From a virus, in the IMG/VR virus record IMGVR_UViG_3300042455_001551, positions 1 to 54,617 of that record: a stretch of 54,617 nucleotides of DNA; one strand, given 5' to 3'. Made by a program: the position numbers and the translations under genes. Of the stretch, positions 24,953 to 47,055 are shown in pieces (positions within the stretch are counted from its first letter, which is position 1; every line of letters starts with the position of its first letter). The notes beneath the pieces were generated by a model, which was not told the DNA's origin, ran no database searches, and saw only the letters and a program-made list of their open reading frames with translations.

Positions 24953-27568
24953 TTACCTTTTCTTGTAAAAGCTTCTTTGCGGCGTTTTTCTAAAGAATTC
25001 TACTTTCTTAGCTTGTTTTGGTAGGTCTATTTGTGTTTCCTCTCTTTTTTTAGATAATCCTTTTGGGTATATGTAGTTTTTTTCAAGGTAATGTAAAAAT
25101 CCTATACAACCTATATGTCCAGACACTCTATCGAAGTTTCCACTTTCCGTATAGTTCATAATTTCAGAAAGCAACCATATATCATTTATTGTTTGTACTC
25201 TTTTTACTATTGCTTCTTTACCGTAGTCATCTATTATTTTTATGTTTTCATCTAGGTAATTAGCATACATTCCTATAAGTTTCTTTTTAGATTGTCTAGG
25301 TGTCCAGCCGTATTTTCTAGCATCATTTTCAGAATAAGTTAGAGAGCTGTTAAAATCTATGTGTTTCTCTAAATAAGTGTCTTCTAATCTTAAAGATTCT
25401 AAATATGTTTGAAACACACCTATATCTTCATTCTCTGGAAAAAATGCTGCATTATAGTATTCTAAAAGTAAAAGCACTTTGTCATTAAGTTCTTTATATG
25501 TTTTAGGTCTTCCCGCATAAGTGGCTACTAATTTTTTACCATTTGGGTCACCAAACATAGGATACTTATAAATACCTATAGTACAAACCGAATCTGTTGT
25601 TGTTGTTTTTTCTTGTTTGTAAAAGTCGCCACTTGCTACATAAAGGTATTTTGGTGATTTTTGTCCTGGTAATTCAAACAATAGAAACGGTGCGTCTTGA
25701 TTTTCACCTCTAAATGGAAACTCTACTAATTTTTTTGTAGATAATGTTGCTTCTACAACACCGTTTGAGTTTCTACTTAATTCATATCTAGCATCCCAGC
25801 CACCAGTTTCCAATAAGTACTCTCTGTGTTTTCTTGCCTCTTCGTATACATTTGAAAAAGGAGATACTTCGGAACTTAAAAAAACTTCTTCTGGGTCAAT
25901 TGGGTATTGTACAGTCTCTTGTTGTAATAAAAGGTTATCATCTTTTACCAATCTTCTATCTTCTAGTAGTACTTTTAAGTTATGTTCCCAATCTGCTTGG
26001 TGTATAATTACTTTATCTAGTTCTTTTGACTTTATCCCTAAAAACTCACCAAATGGTTTTTTAATACTTCTGAGTCCTGTTTTATATGACATTTGTGCTG
26101 GGACAAACGTTGCAAATTTTCTACGTTTCCAACTTATAGATTCAACTGGTATTTTAGATTCAAAACTATCCCAATCCATTTCTAAAAAGTTTAAAGATGT
26201 GGGATTAGCTAATGCAGACATAGCGTCTCCAGATAAACTTGCCTCCCCACCTGTACCAACAGCTATAGGTACACATTTCCATCTATCCTTTGTTTCAAAC
26301 GAAGGTTTAGCGGCTAAGTATGACTTTTTCCAATCGAATTTTCCTATTTCTTCGATAAGGTAGACCGACGGAGCCCCTCCAGCTGTCTTCTGTGTAGCTT
26401 TTGTTGTTCCTCCTGCTAAGTTTTTAATAACAAATCTCGAATACTCTACAAGGTTACTTGCCGTTGTTTTTAAACCTAATTCTACAGAACCTCCTAACCA
26501 CTCCTGACTTTGAATGTATAAATAAAAAGCTTTAGGTATATACTTCATAGCAGTTTTTATTTTATGTGTCAGGTCAATTAAATCTCCCTCGGAACCAGAT
26601 GTAATAGTTGCAGATGAGTTTGGTTTTGTTAACGCTTTCCAATAACAGTATGAAGACATCAAAGTAGATTTTCCAAGTCTTCGGCTTCCATAAAGTATAA
26701 CACCTCTGTTACCTGCTTTCTCAGCTCTTTTTATCTCTTCTACAAATAACCACTCGTTATCTCTAAAGTCTGGGTTGATTATAGGTTCGGAACCATCATC
26801 TTGTGGTATAGGTGTTTTAAAAAAGTTGATATGGAAGTATAACCAAGGGTGTATAAAATAGCCATCTAATTCAAATCCGTTTTTGATTTTAAGCCACTCG
26901 TTTTGCCAAAAAGGTAGTACTTCTTCTTTATCTTGCTCCCAAAAATGCTTTTTTTCATTCCATTGTGGAACTTTGCCTTCTTTTAATAACTCCTTATAAA
27001 ATGTTTTATCACCTACTTCCGTAGATAAGTTAAGCGAGTCCGTTGCTTCTTTTATGTCGTTGTTTACAACAGTTAAAACCTCAGTCATCGGTAATGATGC
27101 AATTTGACCGCTATAAAAATTAAACTTTAAATCATCAGGTTCACTTTTTAGACTAAGTGCGTCCATTTTATCTTGTATAGATATCTTATCATTAAAAACC
27201 TTATCTTGAAATGCTATTTCTTGTGTCTTTAAATCAATTTCTTCTTCTGTGTCGTCTGTTGATTCTATTAACTCATCTAGCTTGTAATCTAAATACCCAT
27301 CACATTTTGCTAAATGTATGTTTATTATTTTAACCGTAGTATCTATGAATTTTTGAGTCTTTGGTAATTTTCTATCAGCATCTGCTATTTTTATAAATGC
27401 AGATAACCTCCCAACAATAGAAGTTGTTAATTCGTTCTCTTGCTTAAATAGCTTTACTCTTTTACCTAAATCTGGCTCGTCTGTCCATCTGTTAGATTCA
27501 ATTACGGTAGAGTTTCTTTTAAAATACTCTTTATGTTGTCTTATAAACTTATCTACTCTTTCTGACAT
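24953..27568 (-). CDS. Large terminase subunit, 871 aa
   Basis: The motor has a Walker A motif GSRRLGKST at 294-302 (Lys300) and a Walker B motif VYLIEE at 402-407. The C-terminal nuclease domain starts near residue 640 with YVASGDFYKQE, Asp648 being the likely first metal ligand. The N-terminal 250 residues are an extra helical domain, making the protein longer than the usual 450-700. It would pump DNA into the procapsid and cut the concatemer, working with the portal encoded next. Its start overlaps by 16 bp the end of a homing-endonuclease gene, which therefore seems inserted between terminase and its former upstream neighbour. Confidence 0.88.
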   Translation of the reverse strand: MSERVDKFIRQHKEYFKRNSTVIESNRWTDEPDLGKRVKLFKQENELTTSIVGRLSAFIKIADADRKLPKTQKFIDTTVKIINIHLAKCDGYLDYKLDELIESTDDTEEEIDLKTQEIAFQDKVFNDKISIQDKMDALSLKSEPDDLKFNFYSGQIASLPMTEVLTVVNNDIKEATDSLNLSTEVGDKTFYKELLKEGKVPQWNEKKHFWEQDKEEVLPFWQNEWLKIKNGFELDGYFIHPWLYFHINFFKTPIPQDDGSEPIINPDFRDNEWLFVEEIKRAEKAGNRGVILYGSRRLGKSTLMSSYCYWKALTKPNSSATITSGSEGDLIDLTHKIKTAMKYIPKAFYLYIQSQEWLGGSVELGLKTTASNLVEYSRFVIKNLAGGTTKATQKTAGGAPSVYLIEEIGKFDWKKSYLAAKPSFETKDRWKCVPIAVGTGGEASLSGDAMSALANPTSLNFLEMDWDSFESKIPVESISWKRRKFATFVPAQMSYKTGLRSIKKPFGEFLGIKSKELDKVIIHQADWEHNLKVLLEDRRLVKDDNLLLQQETVQYPIDPEEVFLSSEVSPFSNVYEEARKHREYLLETGGWDARYELSRNSNGVVEATLSTKKLVEFPFRGENQDAPFLLFELPGQKSPKYLYVASGDFYKQEKTTTTDSVCTIGIYKYPMFGDPNGKKLVATYAGRPKTYKELNDKVLLLLEYYNAAFFPENEDIGVFQTYLESLRLEDTYLEKHIDFNSSLTYSENDARKYGWTPRQSKKKLIGMYANYLDENIKIIDDYGKEAIVKRVQTINDIWLLSEIMNYTESGNFDRVSGHIGCIGFLHYLEKNYIYPKGLSKKREETQIDLPKQAKKVEFFRKTPQRSFYKKR

Positions 27569-28734
27569 TGTAAATCTATTACTTCTTGTATTGGTAATTT
27601 AAGAGTGTAACATTCGGAATATCCGTCAAATATTTTATTTACTCTGTAATTATATCTAACATATTTTTTATGTAGCTCCTCCTCTAAATCCCATATAGTT
27701 TCTGCATCTGAGTTGTATAAAAATATTTCCTCATAATCATAAGGCATATTCACACTAGTGTACCTCTTTTTTAAACCTCTGAATGTTTTACCTATTTTGT
27801 AAAACTCTTCGTATTCATCAAAACATTTTATTAAATATAAAGAAGTTACCCGCCCATTAGCTAATTCAACATATTCTTTTTTAGTATGGTGATGACCTTT
27901 TCCGTTATATCCGTGTTTGCATTTTGGACAACCTTTACCATTTGTGTGATTTTTAGGTAGGACAGGATATATATAATCATGTTTTTTACATCTTACATTG
28001 ATATAATTCAAGGCACCTTTATAATCAGTAACTGTATAGTCATTGTTATCTCCCCATACTTGTACAGCCTCTTTTATGAATTCTTCTGTTGTTTTCATTC
28101 TAAGTGCTGTATAATTTTCACGAGAACACTTTGGACATTTTTGACCGCTTAGATAACTACTAATATTTATTTTAAAAGTATGGTCGTGTTTTTTACATCT
28201 AATTTCTACATCTTTTACAGAAGGATATATATCTGTGTTTGTATAATCATGCTCATCACCATGTTTGTTTATAGCAGATTGAATAAATAATTCTTTATCA
28301 TTTAACCTACTTCTTCTACTTTCTCTAGAACACTCTGGACAACGATATCCTCTAAGATAGTGGTCAGGTTGTTTTTCATACTCCAAGTTATGTTTTTTAC
28401 ATGTAAAAGTAACTTCTGTTTTTGTATTTTTATACTCTACTTTTGAATAATCATCTAAATCTCCGTATTTTTCTAAAGCTTCTTCTACAAATTTTTCTTT
28501 ACCTTTAGAGTTTAATTTTGACATTTTTTCTCTTTCACAAAGTGGACAGGTTGTTCCTTTTTTATGATTTTTTGGAATTTGTTGAAATGTGTAATCGTGC
28601 TTTTTACATCTTATCTTTACCTTAGTATTGGTATCAACATACTCCACTTTACTATAATCAAAAGCGTCTCCATGAACATCTTTAAACTGTTCAATTACTT
28701 TTTCTTGTGTTAATTTATTATGTGCTGTTCTCAT
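27553..28734 (-). CDS. Homing endonuclease: four zinc-ribbon repeats plus GIY-YIG-like domain, 393 aa
   Basis: Four tandem units of about 65 residues (10-70, 80-137, 150-205, 220-275) each have an F/Y-DYS/T helix, a RCKKHDxxF segment and a C-terminal CPxC pair. Together these look like DNA-binding zinc ribbons of the DUF723 type. Residues 286-370 (LYLIKCF, FYKIGKT, LKKRY, then WDLEEELHKKY) match the T5orf172/GIY-YIG nuclease fold with a glutamate at the end. Such free-standing nucleases spread by cutting phage genomes lacking them. The gene overlaps the terminase start, a conserved target often used by homing genes. A terminator lies upstream and no dedicated promoter is clear. Confidence 0.75.
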   Translation of the reverse strand: MRTAHNKLTQEKVIEQFKDVHGDAFDYSKVEYVDTNTKVKIRCKKHDYTFQQIPKNHKKGTTCPLCEREKMSKLNSKGKEKFVEEALEKYGDLDDYSKVEYKNTKTEVTFTCKKHNLEYEKQPDHYLRGYRCPECSRESRRSRLNDKELFIQSAINKHGDEHDYTNTDIYPSVKDVEIRCKKHDHTFKINISSYLSGQKCPKCSRENYTALRMKTTEEFIKEAVQVWGDNNDYTVTDYKGALNYINVRCKKHDYIYPVLPKNHTNGKGCPKCKHGYNGKGHHHTKKEYVELANGRVTSLYLIKCFDEYEEFYKIGKTFRGLKKRYTSVNMPYDYEEIFLYNSDAETIWDLEEELHKKYVRYNYRVNKIFDGYSECYTLKLPIQEVIDLQCQKE

Positions 28735-28745
28735 TTATAAACTTG

Positions 28746-28769
28746 AAAAGGGGACAGTAATTGCCCCCT
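28746..28769 (-). terminator. Rho-independent terminator before the homing-endonuclease/terminase block
   Basis: Minus strand: GGGG/CCCC stem around a 10-nt loop, followed by TTTT. Weaker than the other left-arm terminators; partial read-through into the endonuclease and terminase genes is likely because no strong promoter lies between. Confidence 0.65.
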
Positions 28770-28773
28770 AAAA

Positions 28774-29181
28774 TTAATTTGATATTCTTTCAAAATATGT
28801 CTTCTCTATGAGGTCATATTTGGTTTTGTTTATTACAGTCCTTTCTCCATTTTTTATGGCGAAAACTTGGTCTAAACCTACTCCTTCGAGTTCTGTCTCT
28901 ATTGCTTCTTTTATTTCTGTTGGCGGCTCAATAAAATCTTTATATGCCTCCATAGTAAAATACAGTCTTGCTTTTAATTCAGCTAAATCAGATTGTGCAA
29001 TCATAACCCATGCTACTTTATCAAAATACAATCTGTGTAAATCTTTATTGTCTAAACCTTCAGATTCATCTACTATTTTTTGCTGTACTTCTTCTATATT
29101 TTTAGATTCTTCTAAAAGATAGTTTTTATATTCCATATATTCTCGGAATATTTTTTCTACGTATGTCTCTAAATTTTTCAT
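28774..29181 (-). CDS. Unknown helical protein, 135 aa
   Basis: Not recognised. Acidic and mostly helical, with a coiled-coil N-terminus (YVEKIFREYMEYKNYLLEES). Its place upstream of terminase could suit a small terminase subunit, but no HTH motif is evident. It follows the 78-aa gene by 3 bp. Confidence 0.55.
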   Translation of the reverse strand: MKNLETYVEKIFREYMEYKNYLLEESKNIEEVQQKIVDESEGLDNKDLHRLYFDKVAWVMIAQSDLAELKARLYFTMEAYKDFIEPPTEIKEAIETELEGVGLDQVFAIKNGERTVINKTKYDLIEKTYFERISN

Positions 29182-38117: not shown

Positions 38118-38390
38118 ATGAACAAGCTAAAAATTTGGTTTTTAAAAATGTGTCTTAACCATTGTGTTGAGAGTGAGGATAATTTCTGTTTTAGATATTT
38201 CCGTTTTAAACTTTTTTTGGCGCGAAAAATAAATAAAAAAGATATGGAAACTCCATGTAAACCAGACCACAACGGAGAATGTTTAATATGTGATTGCTGG
38301 TTAGAAAATTGCGCATTTGAAAGGTGGAAAAACAAAGATTATAAATATGAAACAAAAGAAGAACTAAATAAAATGTTTGATGGCAGTTAA
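38118..38390 (+). CDS. Cys-rich small protein, 90 aa
   Basis: The C-terminal 45 residues hold a Cys cluster (CKPDHNGECLICDCWLENC) that suggests a zinc site; the N-terminal 40 are basic and aromatic. Not recognised. It overlaps the next gene by 11 bp. Confidence 0.55.
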   Translation: MNKLKIWFLKMCLNHCVESEDNFCFRYFRFKLFLARKINKKDMETPCKPDHNGECLICDCWLENCAFERWKNKDYKYETKEELNKMFDGS

Positions 38391-41265: not shown

Positions 41266-41335
41266 TGTTCAATGGTGTAATGGTAACACAACTGTTTTTG
41301 GTGCAGTTATTCCAAGTTCAAGTCTTGGTTGAACA
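41266..41335 (+). tRNA. tRNA-Gln(TTG)
   Basis: All parts fit. Acceptor TGTTCAA pairs with TTGAACA. The D-arm is GTGT-AATGGTA-ACAC. The anticodon arm is ACTGT-TTTTGGT-GCAGT with T33 and anticodon TTG (decodes CAA). The variable loop is 4 nt. The T-arm is CCAAG-TTCAAGT-CTTGG. The length is 70 nt and no CCA is encoded. CAA is the common Gln codon in the phage genes. It lies at the end of the structured non-coding region, 17 bp before a small ORF. Confidence 0.95.
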
Positions 41336-41352
41336 TCTAAATTTAAAATGAT

Positions 41353-44289: not shown

Positions 44290-45467
44290 TGATAACCTAT
44301 ACCTTTAAAATAAAAACTACTAAATCCCTTGAATTAAAGTTTGAAGAGCATCTAAACATAACTAGATATATCTACAATTTAGCAAAAGAGACTAAAGAAT
44401 ATGCTTATTCTAAAGGTGTGAAATTAAGTAAGTTTGATTTATGCAAACAATTACCAGAACTTAAAAAAGAATTTACTTGGATTTTTAATGTAAATGCTAA
44501 CACATTACAAAGTACAATAGAAAGACTTGATAAAAGCTATAAAAAGTTTTTCAAAGATTTTAAAGAAGGTAAAATTTCAAAACTAAAACAGGATTACATC
44601 AACAAATGTTTAAAAAATGGAACAGAAATTAATCAAAAGAAACTATTTGAAATTGGAAAGCCCAAATGGGCAAAGAAAAAAGACTGGGAATCAATAGAAT
44701 TTAATCAAGGTAATACAAAAAGAATAACTCCAGATTTAAGATTTGAAAAAGACGGAAAATTTAATTTACCAAAATTAGGAAAAGTAAAAATATTTAAAAG
44801 TAGAGAAGTATATGGAAACATAAAATTAGCAAGAGTAGTTAAAAAAGTTGACGGTTGGTACTTACAAATAGTTACAGACCACGAAATCCAAAAATGCAAT
44901 AACCAAGCACAAGTAGGAATTGATGTAGGGATAACACATTTTGCAGTTACCTCAGACGGTCAATTTTTTGAGAATATTAAAACAACTAACAAGTATGCTA
45001 AAAAATTAGCAGATGCTCAAAGAAAGTTAGCTTTGAAGAAAAGAGGTTCTAACAACTTTTACAAAGAAGTAGAAAAAGTAAAGAAAATCTATTTAAAAAT
45101 ACAAAGAGTTAGAGAAGATTATCTTCATAAAGTTTCAAGAGAGTTAGCTAATAATTATCAAACAGTTTTTGTAGAGGATTTAGACGTATCAAAAATGGTA
45201 CAAAATAAAAACTATTCAAAAGCTATTTCAGATGTTAGTTGGAGTAAATTTGCTCAATACTTAGAGTACAAAACAGAATTAATAAAAATAGATGCTAAAT
45301 ATAGTTCACAAGAATGTAATAATTGTGGGTATGTTGCAAAAGAAAACAGACCTAATCAAGAAACGTTTAAATGTGTTAAATGTTCTCACGAAGGTAATGC
45401 AGATTTTTTAGCGTCATTAACAATTTTAAAGCGTGGACAAACGCTACTAGAGAATTATGATAAATAG
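44289..45467 (+). CDS. tnpB: TnpB-family RNA-guided nuclease (IS200/IS605 OrfB), 392 aa
   Basis: The RuvC residues seem intact: Asp212 in GIDVG, Glu296 in VFVEDLD, and Asp372 in GNADFLASLTIL. The zinc finger between the last two has Cys343, Cys346, Cys362 and Cys365 (CNNCG...CVKC). The N-terminal wedge-like part (TRYIYNLAKETKEYAY) is typical. TnpB proteins cut DNA guided by a transcript of the element's right end (omega RNA). No TnpA is present, and the gene is joined on both sides to phage genes (TAATG before, 11-bp overlap with the GroEL-like gene after). It looks incorporated in the phage operon rather than inserted as a whole element. A hairpin lies in its last codons. Confidence 0.9.
   Translation: MITYTFKIKTTKSLELKFEEHLNITRYIYNLAKETKEYAYSKGVKLSKFDLCKQLPELKKEFTWIFNVNANTLQSTIERLDKSYKKFFKDFKEGKISKLKQDYINKCLKNGTEINQKKLFEIGKPKWAKKKDWESIEFNQGNTKRITPDLRFEKDGKFNLPKLGKVKIFKSREVYGNIKLARVVKKVDGWYLQIVTDHEIQKCNNQAQVGIDVGITHFAVTSDGQFFENIKTTNKYAKKLADAQRKLALKKRGSNNFYKEVEKVKKIYLKIQRVREDYLHKVSRELANNYQTVFVEDLDVSKMVQNKNYSKAISDVSWSKFAQYLEYKTELIKIDAKYSSQECNNCGYVAKENRPNQETFKCVKCSHEGNADFLASLTILKRGQTLLENYDK
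45430..45445 (+). other. Hairpin in the last codons of tnpB (possible omega RNA stem)
   Basis: AGCGT pairs with ACGCT around a 6-nt loop. In IS200/IS605 elements the guide RNA scaffold is made from the 3' end of tnpB, so this stem is where such a structure would lie. The following bases are the start of the GroEL-like gene, which would be the guide if a canonical RNA were made. Confidence 0.35.
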
Positions 45468-47055
45468 TTTAAAAAGAACTCCGTTAAAGGGGGTTGTCAA
45501 TATATTGATTAAAGATTATGACCTTTTAGATGAAGGTTATTTACAAGCTTGTGAGGCAGTTGCTCAAACTTTAGGTGCTGAAGGTAAGTATTCGCTATTA
45601 GACAGCGGAAACGATAAAGATGCACCAATTTTAACAAAAGACGGTGTTTCTGTAGCTTTAAGAATTAGGTTTGCAGAGCCAGCAAAAAACTTTGGTGCTT
45701 TACAAGCTATTCAAGGTGCTGTATCCACTTTAAAAAAGTCTGGAGATAGTACTACTACAACAATGGTCTTTCAAAAAGCTTTCTTAAACAATTTCAAGAG
45801 AAAAAATTTCAATAAAGCCGTAGAAAGAGGTATAAAAGCAGCAGTTAGTGAAGTGTATAGTAATTTAGATTATTTTGCTATAGATACAGATGAAAATTCA
45901 CTTAGAATGATTGCTAACACTTCTTGTAATAACGATACAGAGTTAGGTGGTAAGATAGTTCAAGCTTTTAATTCTGTTGGTAGAGACGGCGTTATAGAAG
46001 TTTCAAAAAATGAAAATACAGAAGATATAAAAGTTATTGAGCAAAGTGGAATGGTGTTACCTAATCAAGGTTTTTCTTCTCCATTTTTTATAAACAAAGA
46101 ATCTAAACCAGTATTTGAAGACGAGAAGGTTTCTGTTTTATGTTTATCTATCTGGCAAGAAAATACAGAGGTTTTAGACTTTTTAAAATACTTTGTACAA
46201 AGAAACGGTAATAAAGCGCCTTTATTAATCTTTACAGAACGACCTATTACAGAATTTAAAGACAGATTGATTGTTTTAAAGAATGCAGGAGTAAATATTT
46301 GTTTAGTTGGACTTGCTGTTCAATCAGAATATGAAAATGTATCTTTATTGAACGATATTGCTATGTTCACTGGAGCAGAAGTTTACAATCCAGACACCGT
46401 TAAGAGAGATAAAGATAATAATCCTATTTTTGTTACAGGTTTTGCCGATAAAGCAGTTATTTCAGATGACCAAACTGTACTTTCGGTAGCGAATATCCCT
46501 CAAGAAGTGTTCGATGCAGTTGAAATTTTGAGAGATAAAGAAGATAAAACACCTTCAGACTTGGCTAGAATGAAAAGATTATCTGGCAAATCTTGTCTTA
46601 TTGAAGTAGGGGGTTTAACACCAAATGATATTAGAGAGAAGTATGACAGAGTTGACGATGCACTTGCTTCAGTTAAATCTGCTATTTCAGAAGGATATAT
46701 TCCAGGTGGAGGAAGTACTTTAGTGTTTATTTCTAATTTAATGTACAAAAAGTTTGCAAATAAAGATGAACAAAAGGGATATAACTTAGTAAAAACAGTT
46801 TTAAAGTCGCCAATGTTGCAAATCTTGAAAAACGCCAACAGAAAAAATAAAAAGTACTTTGGAATAAACTATTTAAAACACTCGGAAGATAAGTTTGGAG
46901 TTGGGTATAATGCAGTTAAAGATGAAATTTCAAATCTATTAACAGATGGTATTATTGACAGTAAAAAATCTATTAGAGTTGCTTTAGAATCAGCTTCAGA
47001 GTCGGCAATAAAAATGTTTAACATAGGCGTTGTAGTCCTATACCCAAAAGTTTAA
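45457..47055 (+). CDS. GroEL-like chaperonin, 532 aa
   Basis: The GroEL signature blocks are in order: APILTKDGVSVA (ATP site), KSGDSTTTTMVF with Asp97 for GroEL Asp87 in GDGTTT, CNNDTELGGKIVQAFNSVGRDGVIEV split over the intermediate domain, an apical domain about 190-370 that diverges, and RVDDALASVKSAISEGYIPGGG with Asp400/401 near the position of GroEL Asp398. The Gly/Met tail is missing; it ends VVVLYPKV. ATPase residues are therefore kept. Phage GroELs are known in some large phages and fold virion proteins. The gene overlaps tnpB by 11 bp and may be expressed with it. A GroES-like gene lies on the left arm. Confidence 0.88.
   Translation: MINSLKRTPLKGVVNILIKDYDLLDEGYLQACEAVAQTLGAEGKYSLLDSGNDKDAPILTKDGVSVALRIRFAEPAKNFGALQAIQGAVSTLKKSGDSTTTTMVFQKAFLNNFKRKNFNKAVERGIKAAVSEVYSNLDYFAIDTDENSLRMIANTSCNNDTELGGKIVQAFNSVGRDGVIEVSKNENTEDIKVIEQSGMVLPNQGFSSPFFINKESKPVFEDEKVSVLCLSIWQENTEVLDFLKYFVQRNGNKAPLLIFTERPITEFKDRLIVLKNAGVNICLVGLAVQSEYENVSLLNDIAMFTGAEVYNPDTVKRDKDNNPIFVTGFADKAVISDDQTVLSVANIPQEVFDAVEILRDKEDKTPSDLARMKRLSGKSCLIEVGGLTPNDIREKYDRVDDALASVKSAISEGYIPGGGSTLVFISNLMYKKFANKDEQKGYNLVKTVLKSPMLQILKNANRKNKKYFGINYLKHSEDKFGVGYNAVKDEISNLLTDGIIDSKKSIRVALESASESAIKMFNIGVVVLYPKV

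What the first reader, a model, noticed from the sequence alone, without database searches (positions are those of the whole stretch)
27553..28734. Homing nuclease placed against the terminase gene
Seen: four zinc-ribbon repeats plus a GIY-YIG-like domain, overlapping the terminase start by 16 bp. Known: homing genes choose conserved neighbours. The repeat-based DNA reader is unusual: each unit could contact a part of the target, like a modular DNA-binding protein.
Basis: partly seen in the sequence, partly recalled or inferred. Interest (0 to 1): 0.55.

Follow-up and report, generated by a model that had tools for sequence, protein, structure and literature searches.

The report
Homing nuclease gene beside terminase gene
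A phage carries a probably selfish DNA-cutting gene, with four linked zinc-finger units and a GIY-YIG nuclease end, placed just before its DNA-packaging gene; it belongs to an already described family, and relatives show that such genes move between phages.

Summary
ORF 27553-28734 (-) encodes four zinc-finger repeats (54-75 bits each; best of 500 shuffled proteins 9 bits) and a C-terminal T5orf172 domain of the GIY-YIG class. It overlaps the large-terminase start by 16 bp.

Comparison supports a free-standing homing endonuclease gene (HEG). Eight phage contigs carry one at the same junction, between a small gene (terS position) and terL; 22 related contigs do not. Carrier terLs are scattered on the terL tree, while the nucleases cluster. 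In one pair the HEG is 89-92% identical while the adjacent terL N-terminus is 35%, with sharp edges around the HEG. A hairpin precedes the HEG in the window and three nearest kin, and lies inside the shared block of that pair.

The kind is published: Barth et al. 2023 (PMC10448857) describe T5orf172 HEGs with repeated zinc-finger "beads", often near terminase genes. So this is a new member of a known kind. Modest additions: a junction-focused lineage, an ordered finger array, a hairpin-plus-HEG block. Cutting, target site and per-finger recognition are untested.

The parts
27553..28734 (-). homing endonuclease gene, 393 aa: four zinc fingers plus T5orf172/GIY-YIG nuclease
   Evidence: (phrog_681 endonuclease 4.2e-62)
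28528..28704 (-). zinc-finger repeat 1 (residues 11-69)
   Evidence: 74.8 bits
28321..28497 (-). zinc-finger repeat 2 (residues 80-138)
   Evidence: 60.8 bits
28117..28293 (-). zinc-finger repeat 3 (residues 148-206)
   Evidence: 55.1 bits
27910..28086 (-). zinc-finger repeat 4 (residues 217-275)
   Evidence: 54.5 bits
27556..27891 (-). T5orf172 / GIY-YIG nuclease domain (residues 282-393); Y300, R324, E351 and E374 invariant in the 32-sequence alignment
27553..27568 (-). 16-bp overlap of the HEG end with the terL start
28749..28769 (-). hairpin between the upstream gene and the HEG start (8 pairs, loop of 5)
   Evidence: second most unusual of 60 gene starts in the window
24953..27568 (-). 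terminase large subunit gene (terL), the neighbour at whose start the HEG lies
   Evidence: phrog_6681 4.9e-71
28774..29181 (-). 135-aa gene in the terS position; terminase-small-subunit identity not shown
   Evidence: no PHROG match

Best explanation
A free-standing, mobile homing endonuclease gene of the T5orf172 kind. The four zinc fingers hold the protein on DNA near the junction of the terS-position gene and terL; the C-terminal GIY-YIG domain cuts an allele that lacks the gene; repair from the carrier phage copies the HEG, probably with its upstream hairpin, into the break. Insertion at the terL start codon leaves terL whole. Shown here: domain architecture, invariant catalytic-type residues, occupied and empty sites, horizontal movement of relatives, purifying selection. 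Inferred: DNA binding by the fingers, cutting, the exact target, and the role of the hairpin (control of HEG expression).
For: Four repeats plus T5orf172; fold second look; Y300, R324, E374 invariant in 32 aligned proteins. Eight contigs with a HEG at this junction (gap 836-1583 bp) against 22 without (21 with -39 to +177 bp). Carriers scattered on the terL tree (at least 5 changes in 27 rows, 3 forced by starred branches; one clade of the six full-length carriers rejected, p-AU 6e-5), junction nucleases clustered (2 changes in 40 rows, 0 of 500 shuffles as low). terL pairs window with L020 (72%), the HEG tree joins L020 to L092/L093 (p-AU 0.02 against window plus L020). L092/L093: HEG 89-92% identical, terS-position gene 72%, terL N-terminus 35%; dS 0.29 for the HEG against 2.25 and 0.96 for two upstream genes, dN/dS 0.16; sharp edges at the HEG block. 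A related two-repeat HEG is present in L012 and absent from the 90-92% identical L014 at the terL-portal gap.
Against: No cutting shown for this protein. No shared target is visible: terL 5' ends of carriers differ (L092 against L093, 35% over 119 residues). Fold scores are modest (Z 5.0 at best; Foldseek nothing below 0.001). No near-identical empty allele of the window's own terL was found; the next terL after L020 (72%) is 48%. AU groups were chosen after seeing earlier trees. For the window and L020 alone (HEG 57%, terL 72%), vertical descent at a fixed site would also fit.
Confidence: 0.85

Rival explanations
1. A domesticated packaging nuclease: like the HNH protein beside the HK97 terminase, it helps terminase to cut or process genome ends and is kept for that purpose.
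For: Position directly before terL in eight contigs; ORFs intact and under purifying selection (dN/dS 0.16 and 0.28). The HK97 precedent is discussed in PMC10448857.
Against: Absent from 22 related contigs with the same gene order; replaced by a different HEG between L097 and L106, whose terLs are 77% identical; moves between phages with unrelated terL 5' ends.
Confidence: 0.08
2. An anti-satellite or anti-competitor nuclease in the manner of Odn, aimed at another element and only lodged beside terL.
For: Odn is a T5orf172 nuclease with such a role (PMC8263062, passages).
Against: No RepA_N domain listed up to E 1 in the Pfam scan; recurrent placement at one phage junction and clustering of the junction HEGs point to the phage locus as target.
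Confidence: 0.04
3. A decayed, inactive HEG that persists by hitch-hiking.
For: Activity is unproven; the first finger of the L020 HEG has lost part of the usual cysteine pattern.
Against: The window ORF is intact with four full fingers, Y300, R324 and E374 invariant in 32 aligned proteins, dN/dS well below 1.
Confidence: 0.03

Closest known systems
T5orf172 HEGs with CapR / DUF723 / DUF4379-type zinc fingers (Barth et al. 2023, PMC10448857), including the one beside terL of Vibrio phage ICP1
   Same: Nuclease domain family, several zinc fingers as beads, place near terminase genes, position at a boundary of exchange between phages
   Different: Other phages (terL kin of Cellulophaga phi17:2, 33-34% identity), a junction lineage with an ordered finger array and an upstream hairpin; no intron seen in the window
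Odn (Gp88) of ICP1 (PMC8263062)
   Same: T5orf172 nuclease domain; Odn cuts DNA in vitro and its glutamate mutant does not (passages)
   Different: Odn binds through RepA_N; the window protein has zinc fingers
T4 GIY-YIG HEGs (seg genes, I-TevI; PMC2988022)
   Same: Free-standing GIY-YIG genes between conserved phage genes; hairpins at or before the ribosome-binding site of several HEGs (passages)
   Different: T5orf172 subfamily with a C-terminal nuclease and N-terminal finger array; I-TevI has its nuclease at the N-terminus (recalled)
HNH nuclease beside the HK97 terminase
   Same: Nuclease gene directly upstream of terminase genes
   Different: HNH fold with a role in cos cutting (as told in PMC10448857); no HNH family listed for the window protein in Pfam; the 'HNH endonuclease' label of phrog_559 rests on residues 5-205, the finger part

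Membership tests
T5orf172 homing endonuclease genes | T5orf172 (GIY-YIG class) nuclease domain | tested here: met
   21.6 bits against a cut-off of 20 for the domain alone, 21 of 27 relatives match at E 0.1; only 17.3 bits in the whole protein
T5orf172 homing endonuclease genes | CapR/DUF723/DUF4379-type zinc fingers, often repeated | tested here: met
   DUF4379 6.2e-17, CapR just under its cut-off; four repeats
T5orf172 homing endonuclease genes | free-standing gene beside an essential gene, present in some relatives and absent in others | tested here: met
   8 contigs with, 22 without at this junction
T5orf172 homing endonuclease genes | horizontal movement apart from the neighbouring genes | tested here: met
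   shown for relatives and, by tree conflict, for the window/L020 pair
T5orf172 homing endonuclease genes | site-specific cutting of the empty allele and biased inheritance | not testable with these tools
   needs protein and phage crosses
GIY-YIG nucleases | GIY-YIG fold | tested here: inconclusive
   VIA second look: Slx1 Z 5.0, UvrC 3.2-3.6; Foldseek nothing below E 0.001; Pfam family membership of T5orf172 in the GIY-YIG class is from PMC8263062
GIY-YIG nucleases | conserved tyrosines, arginine and glutamate | tested here: met
   Y300, R324, E374 invariant and Y312 nearly so in 32 sequences
HK97-type packaging HNH nuclease | HNH domain | tested here: not met
   no HNH family listed up to E 1
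HK97-type packaging HNH nuclease | fixed part of the packaging module in related phages | tested here: not met
   absent from 22 related contigs
Odn-type anti-satellite nuclease | RepA_N DNA-binding domain | tested here: not met
   not listed up to E 1 in Pfam

The most novel reading that the evidence does not exclude
A junction-specific HEG lineage whose ordered finger array reads a shared packaging-region sequence finger by finger, with variable positions between CxxH and CxxC (profile columns 38, 40, 42, 44, 45, 48, 50) as base readers, moving as a hairpin-plus-HEG cassette of about 1.2 kb and re-assorting terS and terL between phages. It would be a natural modular DNA reader.
Probability: 0.15. 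Interest if true: 0.6.

Novelty: new member of a known kind. Interest (0 to 1): 0.3.

Why it matters
It gives a natural set of occupied, empty, replaced and transferred alleles at one junction for testing how T5orf172 nucleases choose a site, whether finger arrays read DNA unit by unit, and how selfish genes re-assort packaging genes between phages.

Tried and rejected
Intron or collaborative homing in the window: the Rfam scan at gathering scores lists only a tRNA, so there is no intron evidence. Solved structures by sequence: none up to E 1 for the whole protein; two unrelated hits, E 0.45 and 0.55, for the nuclease profile. Foldseek for the whole model and for the nuclease alone: nothing below E 0.001. 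VIA rows for the finger part are trypanosome mitoribosome proteins at Z 4.4-5.0, not interpreted. DNA like this region in phage records: short pieces in three records. Hairpin as a feature of all eight junction HEGs: rejected; clear in the window, L020, L092 and L093 (z -2.9, -3.1, -6.4, -5.8) and in L019 (-3.6), weaker in L106 (-1.9) and L097 (-1.0), absent in L094 (0.9) and in two HEGs elsewhere, L123 and L012 (0.0 each). Hairpin as a classical terminator: not listed by the scan. A shared target at the terL start: not visible. Small-terminase identity of the 135-aa gene: one weak unrelated Pfam row, no PHROG.

Rows dropped and limits: the terS-position profile used 15 sequences; a 16th (L021) was left out because my coordinates gave a wrong frame. 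It includes the window, L019, L020 and L092-L094, which therefore match by construction; L097, L106, L004, L089, L091 and others do not. L002, L003 and L020 are one contig; L001 is the window; L007 and L021 I take for one phage (same record length). L012 and L017 are 99.96% identical, so the 22 HEG-less contigs are not 22 independent cases. Gaps are to the start of the stop-to-stop frame of terL. The nuclease tree used 40 of 110 candidate frames (short domain spans, duplicates and repeat loci left out). Not all 80 terL contigs hold enough upstream DNA.

Papers: PMC10448857 seen as 12 passages, section 21 whole and part 1 of 2 of the discussion; PMC8263062 and PMC2988022 as passages; others only in search listings. 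No paper in those listings was seen to describe this junction lineage; that is no proof that none exists.

Full report
What is there. The ORF at 27553-28734 (-) encodes 393 residues. A repeat profile built from 406 repeats of other phages' proteins, without the window and its relative L003/L020, finds four copies of 54.5-74.8 bits; the best of 500 shuffled copies of the protein reaches 9.0 bits. Pfam names the unit DUF4379, a probable treble clef zinc finger, with CapR just below its cut-off. The last 112 residues are a T5orf172 domain: above Pfam's cut-off when scanned alone, with 21 of 27 relatives matching at E 0.1, below it in the full protein. AlphaFold gives the whole protein pLDDT 88.8 but pTM 0.46, as expected if the relative placement of the domains is not fixed, and the nuclease alone pLDDT 92.3 and pTM 0.83. 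A second look at Foldseek's candidates puts Slx1 (Z 5.0) and two UPF0213-type proteins (4.5, 4.2; GIY-YIG membership recalled) first, then UvrC GIY-YIG domains (3.2-3.6) level with unrelated ribosomal rows (3.3-3.7); Foldseek itself gave no match below E 0.001. Y300, R324, E351 and E374 are invariant in the 32-sequence alignment. terL starts 16 bp before the HEG's end. The HEG matches once in the window record. Relatives are common: 600 of 50,697 phage records match at 1e-5, all below 60% identity.

Neighbourhood. The order is: 135-aa gene (terS position), hairpin, HEG, terL, portal. In 22 related contigs without a HEG there, the terS-position gene and terL lie -39 to +177 bp apart in 21, and 570 bp in L027, which has two small ORFs between. 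Eight contigs (window, L020, L019, L092, L093, L094, L097, L106) have 836-1583 bp, holding a HEG; L106 has one more small ORF before it. In all eight the HEG stop lies between 16 bp past the terL start and 2 bp before it: overlaps of 16, 4, 11, 8 and 4 bp (window, L020, L019, L093, L094), gaps of 1, 2 and 2 bp (L092, L097, L106). Of the 80 terL-selected contigs, two (L019, L020) show such a HEG at the junction, so this is a minority state; not all of the 80 hold enough upstream DNA.

Mobility. On the terL tree the carriers are scattered: at least five changes among 27 rows, three forced by starred branches (L092 and L094 have cut-off terL). One clade of the six carriers with full-length terL is rejected (p-AU 6e-5). 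On the nuclease tree the eight junction HEGs cluster among 40 rows: two changes, 0 of 500 shuffles as low. The window's terL is sister to L020's (72%; 100/100), but L020's HEG groups with those of L092 and L093 (99/98; p-AU 0.02 against window plus L020). L092 and L093 share a HEG that is 92% (fingers) and 89% (nuclease) identical, while the terS-position gene is 72% and the first 119 aligned residues of terL are 35%. dS is 0.29 for the HEG, 2.25 for the terS-position gene and 0.96 for the chaperonin-like gene farther upstream; dN/dS of the HEG is 0.16. DNA identity rises from 64-66% in the last two 50-column windows before the hairpin to 92%, stays at 78-100% through the HEG, and falls to 48% at its end. 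So the shared block is hairpin plus HEG, about 1.2 kb. L097 and L106 have 77% identical terLs but HEGs only 36% (fingers) and 44% (nuclease) alike, with four and three fingers. The AU groups were chosen after seeing earlier trees. For the window itself the evidence of movement is the tree conflict; a near-identical empty allele was not found.

The other side of terL. Of 90 loci with terL and portal both seen, five have a gap above 150 bp, each with an ORF that looks like a nuclease or finger protein: a T5orf172 HEG in L012 and L017, GIY-YIG-like ORFs in L027 and L093 (judged by eye), a finger-repeat ORF on the other strand in L090. L012 has 737 bp where L014, 90-92% identical on both sides, has 21 bp.

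The finger array. Finger n of one junction HEG is in most cases most like finger n of its near kin (L020 to L093: 41, 62, 71, 72%), but the window's finger 3 is closer to finger 4 of L020 (48%) than to its finger 3 (39%), and L020's finger 1 is as close to its own finger 4 (42%) as to L093's finger 1 (41%). L106's three fingers are most like 1-3 of the window (48, 48, 43%). Over 419 distinct repeats, variable columns alternate with conserved ones between CxxH and CxxC (38, 40, 42, 44, 45, 48, 50); columns 25, 26 and 57 are as variable. A variable reading surface is an inference only.

The hairpin. The 48 bases before the HEG start fold unusually well in the window (second of 60 gene starts), L020 (first of 14), L092 (first of 9) and L093 (first of 11), with different sequences in the window, L020 and L092/L093; L019 also (z -3.6); weaker in L106 and L097, absent in L094. 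T4-type HEGs have hairpins at or before their ribosome-binding sites (PMC2988022, passages), so control of expression is the likely role, not shown here.

What is known. Barth et al. 2023 (PMC10448857) describe T5orf172 HEGs with one or more CapR/DUF723/DUF4379-type zinc fingers as 'beads on a string', most often with a terminase gene in the neighbourhood (35%), and nuclease genes at boundaries of exchange; ICP1 has one beside terL. The paper prints DUF4397/PF14344 in places and DUF723/4379 in a legend; the window's match is DUF4379, PF14311. Odn shows that a T5orf172 protein can cut DNA (PMC8263062, passages). The finding is a new member of this kind.

Verdict. The homing reading is well supported by comparison and untested by experiment. 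That a repeat-based reader is unusual is not supported.

Noticed in passing
window 45457-47055 (+): A chaperonin groEL gene (phrog_5725, 1.4e-76); in L092-L094 a chaperonin-like ORF (by eye) lies a few genes before the HEG.
   Followed up: no
window 38118-38390 (+), 48 bases before the start: The most unusual predicted upstream hairpin of 60 gene starts in the window (z -5.8).
   Followed up: no
L005 (phage csAssE-Sib) TerL: An insertion right after the RRxGK motif of TerL, which looks like an intein by eye in the alignment; another selfish element in a terminase gene.
   Followed up: no
L093 8970-9721 and L027 8567-9208: GIY-YIG-like ORFs (by motif) between terL and portal; in L093 terL is thus flanked by nuclease-like genes on both sides.
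   Followed up: partly
L123 and L112: HEGs related to the junction lineage lie beside large ORFs that look like DNA polymerase by eye, which hints at different target genes in sister lineages.
   Followed up: no
window 41266-41337 (+): A single tRNA-Gln gene, anticodon ttg.
   Followed up: no
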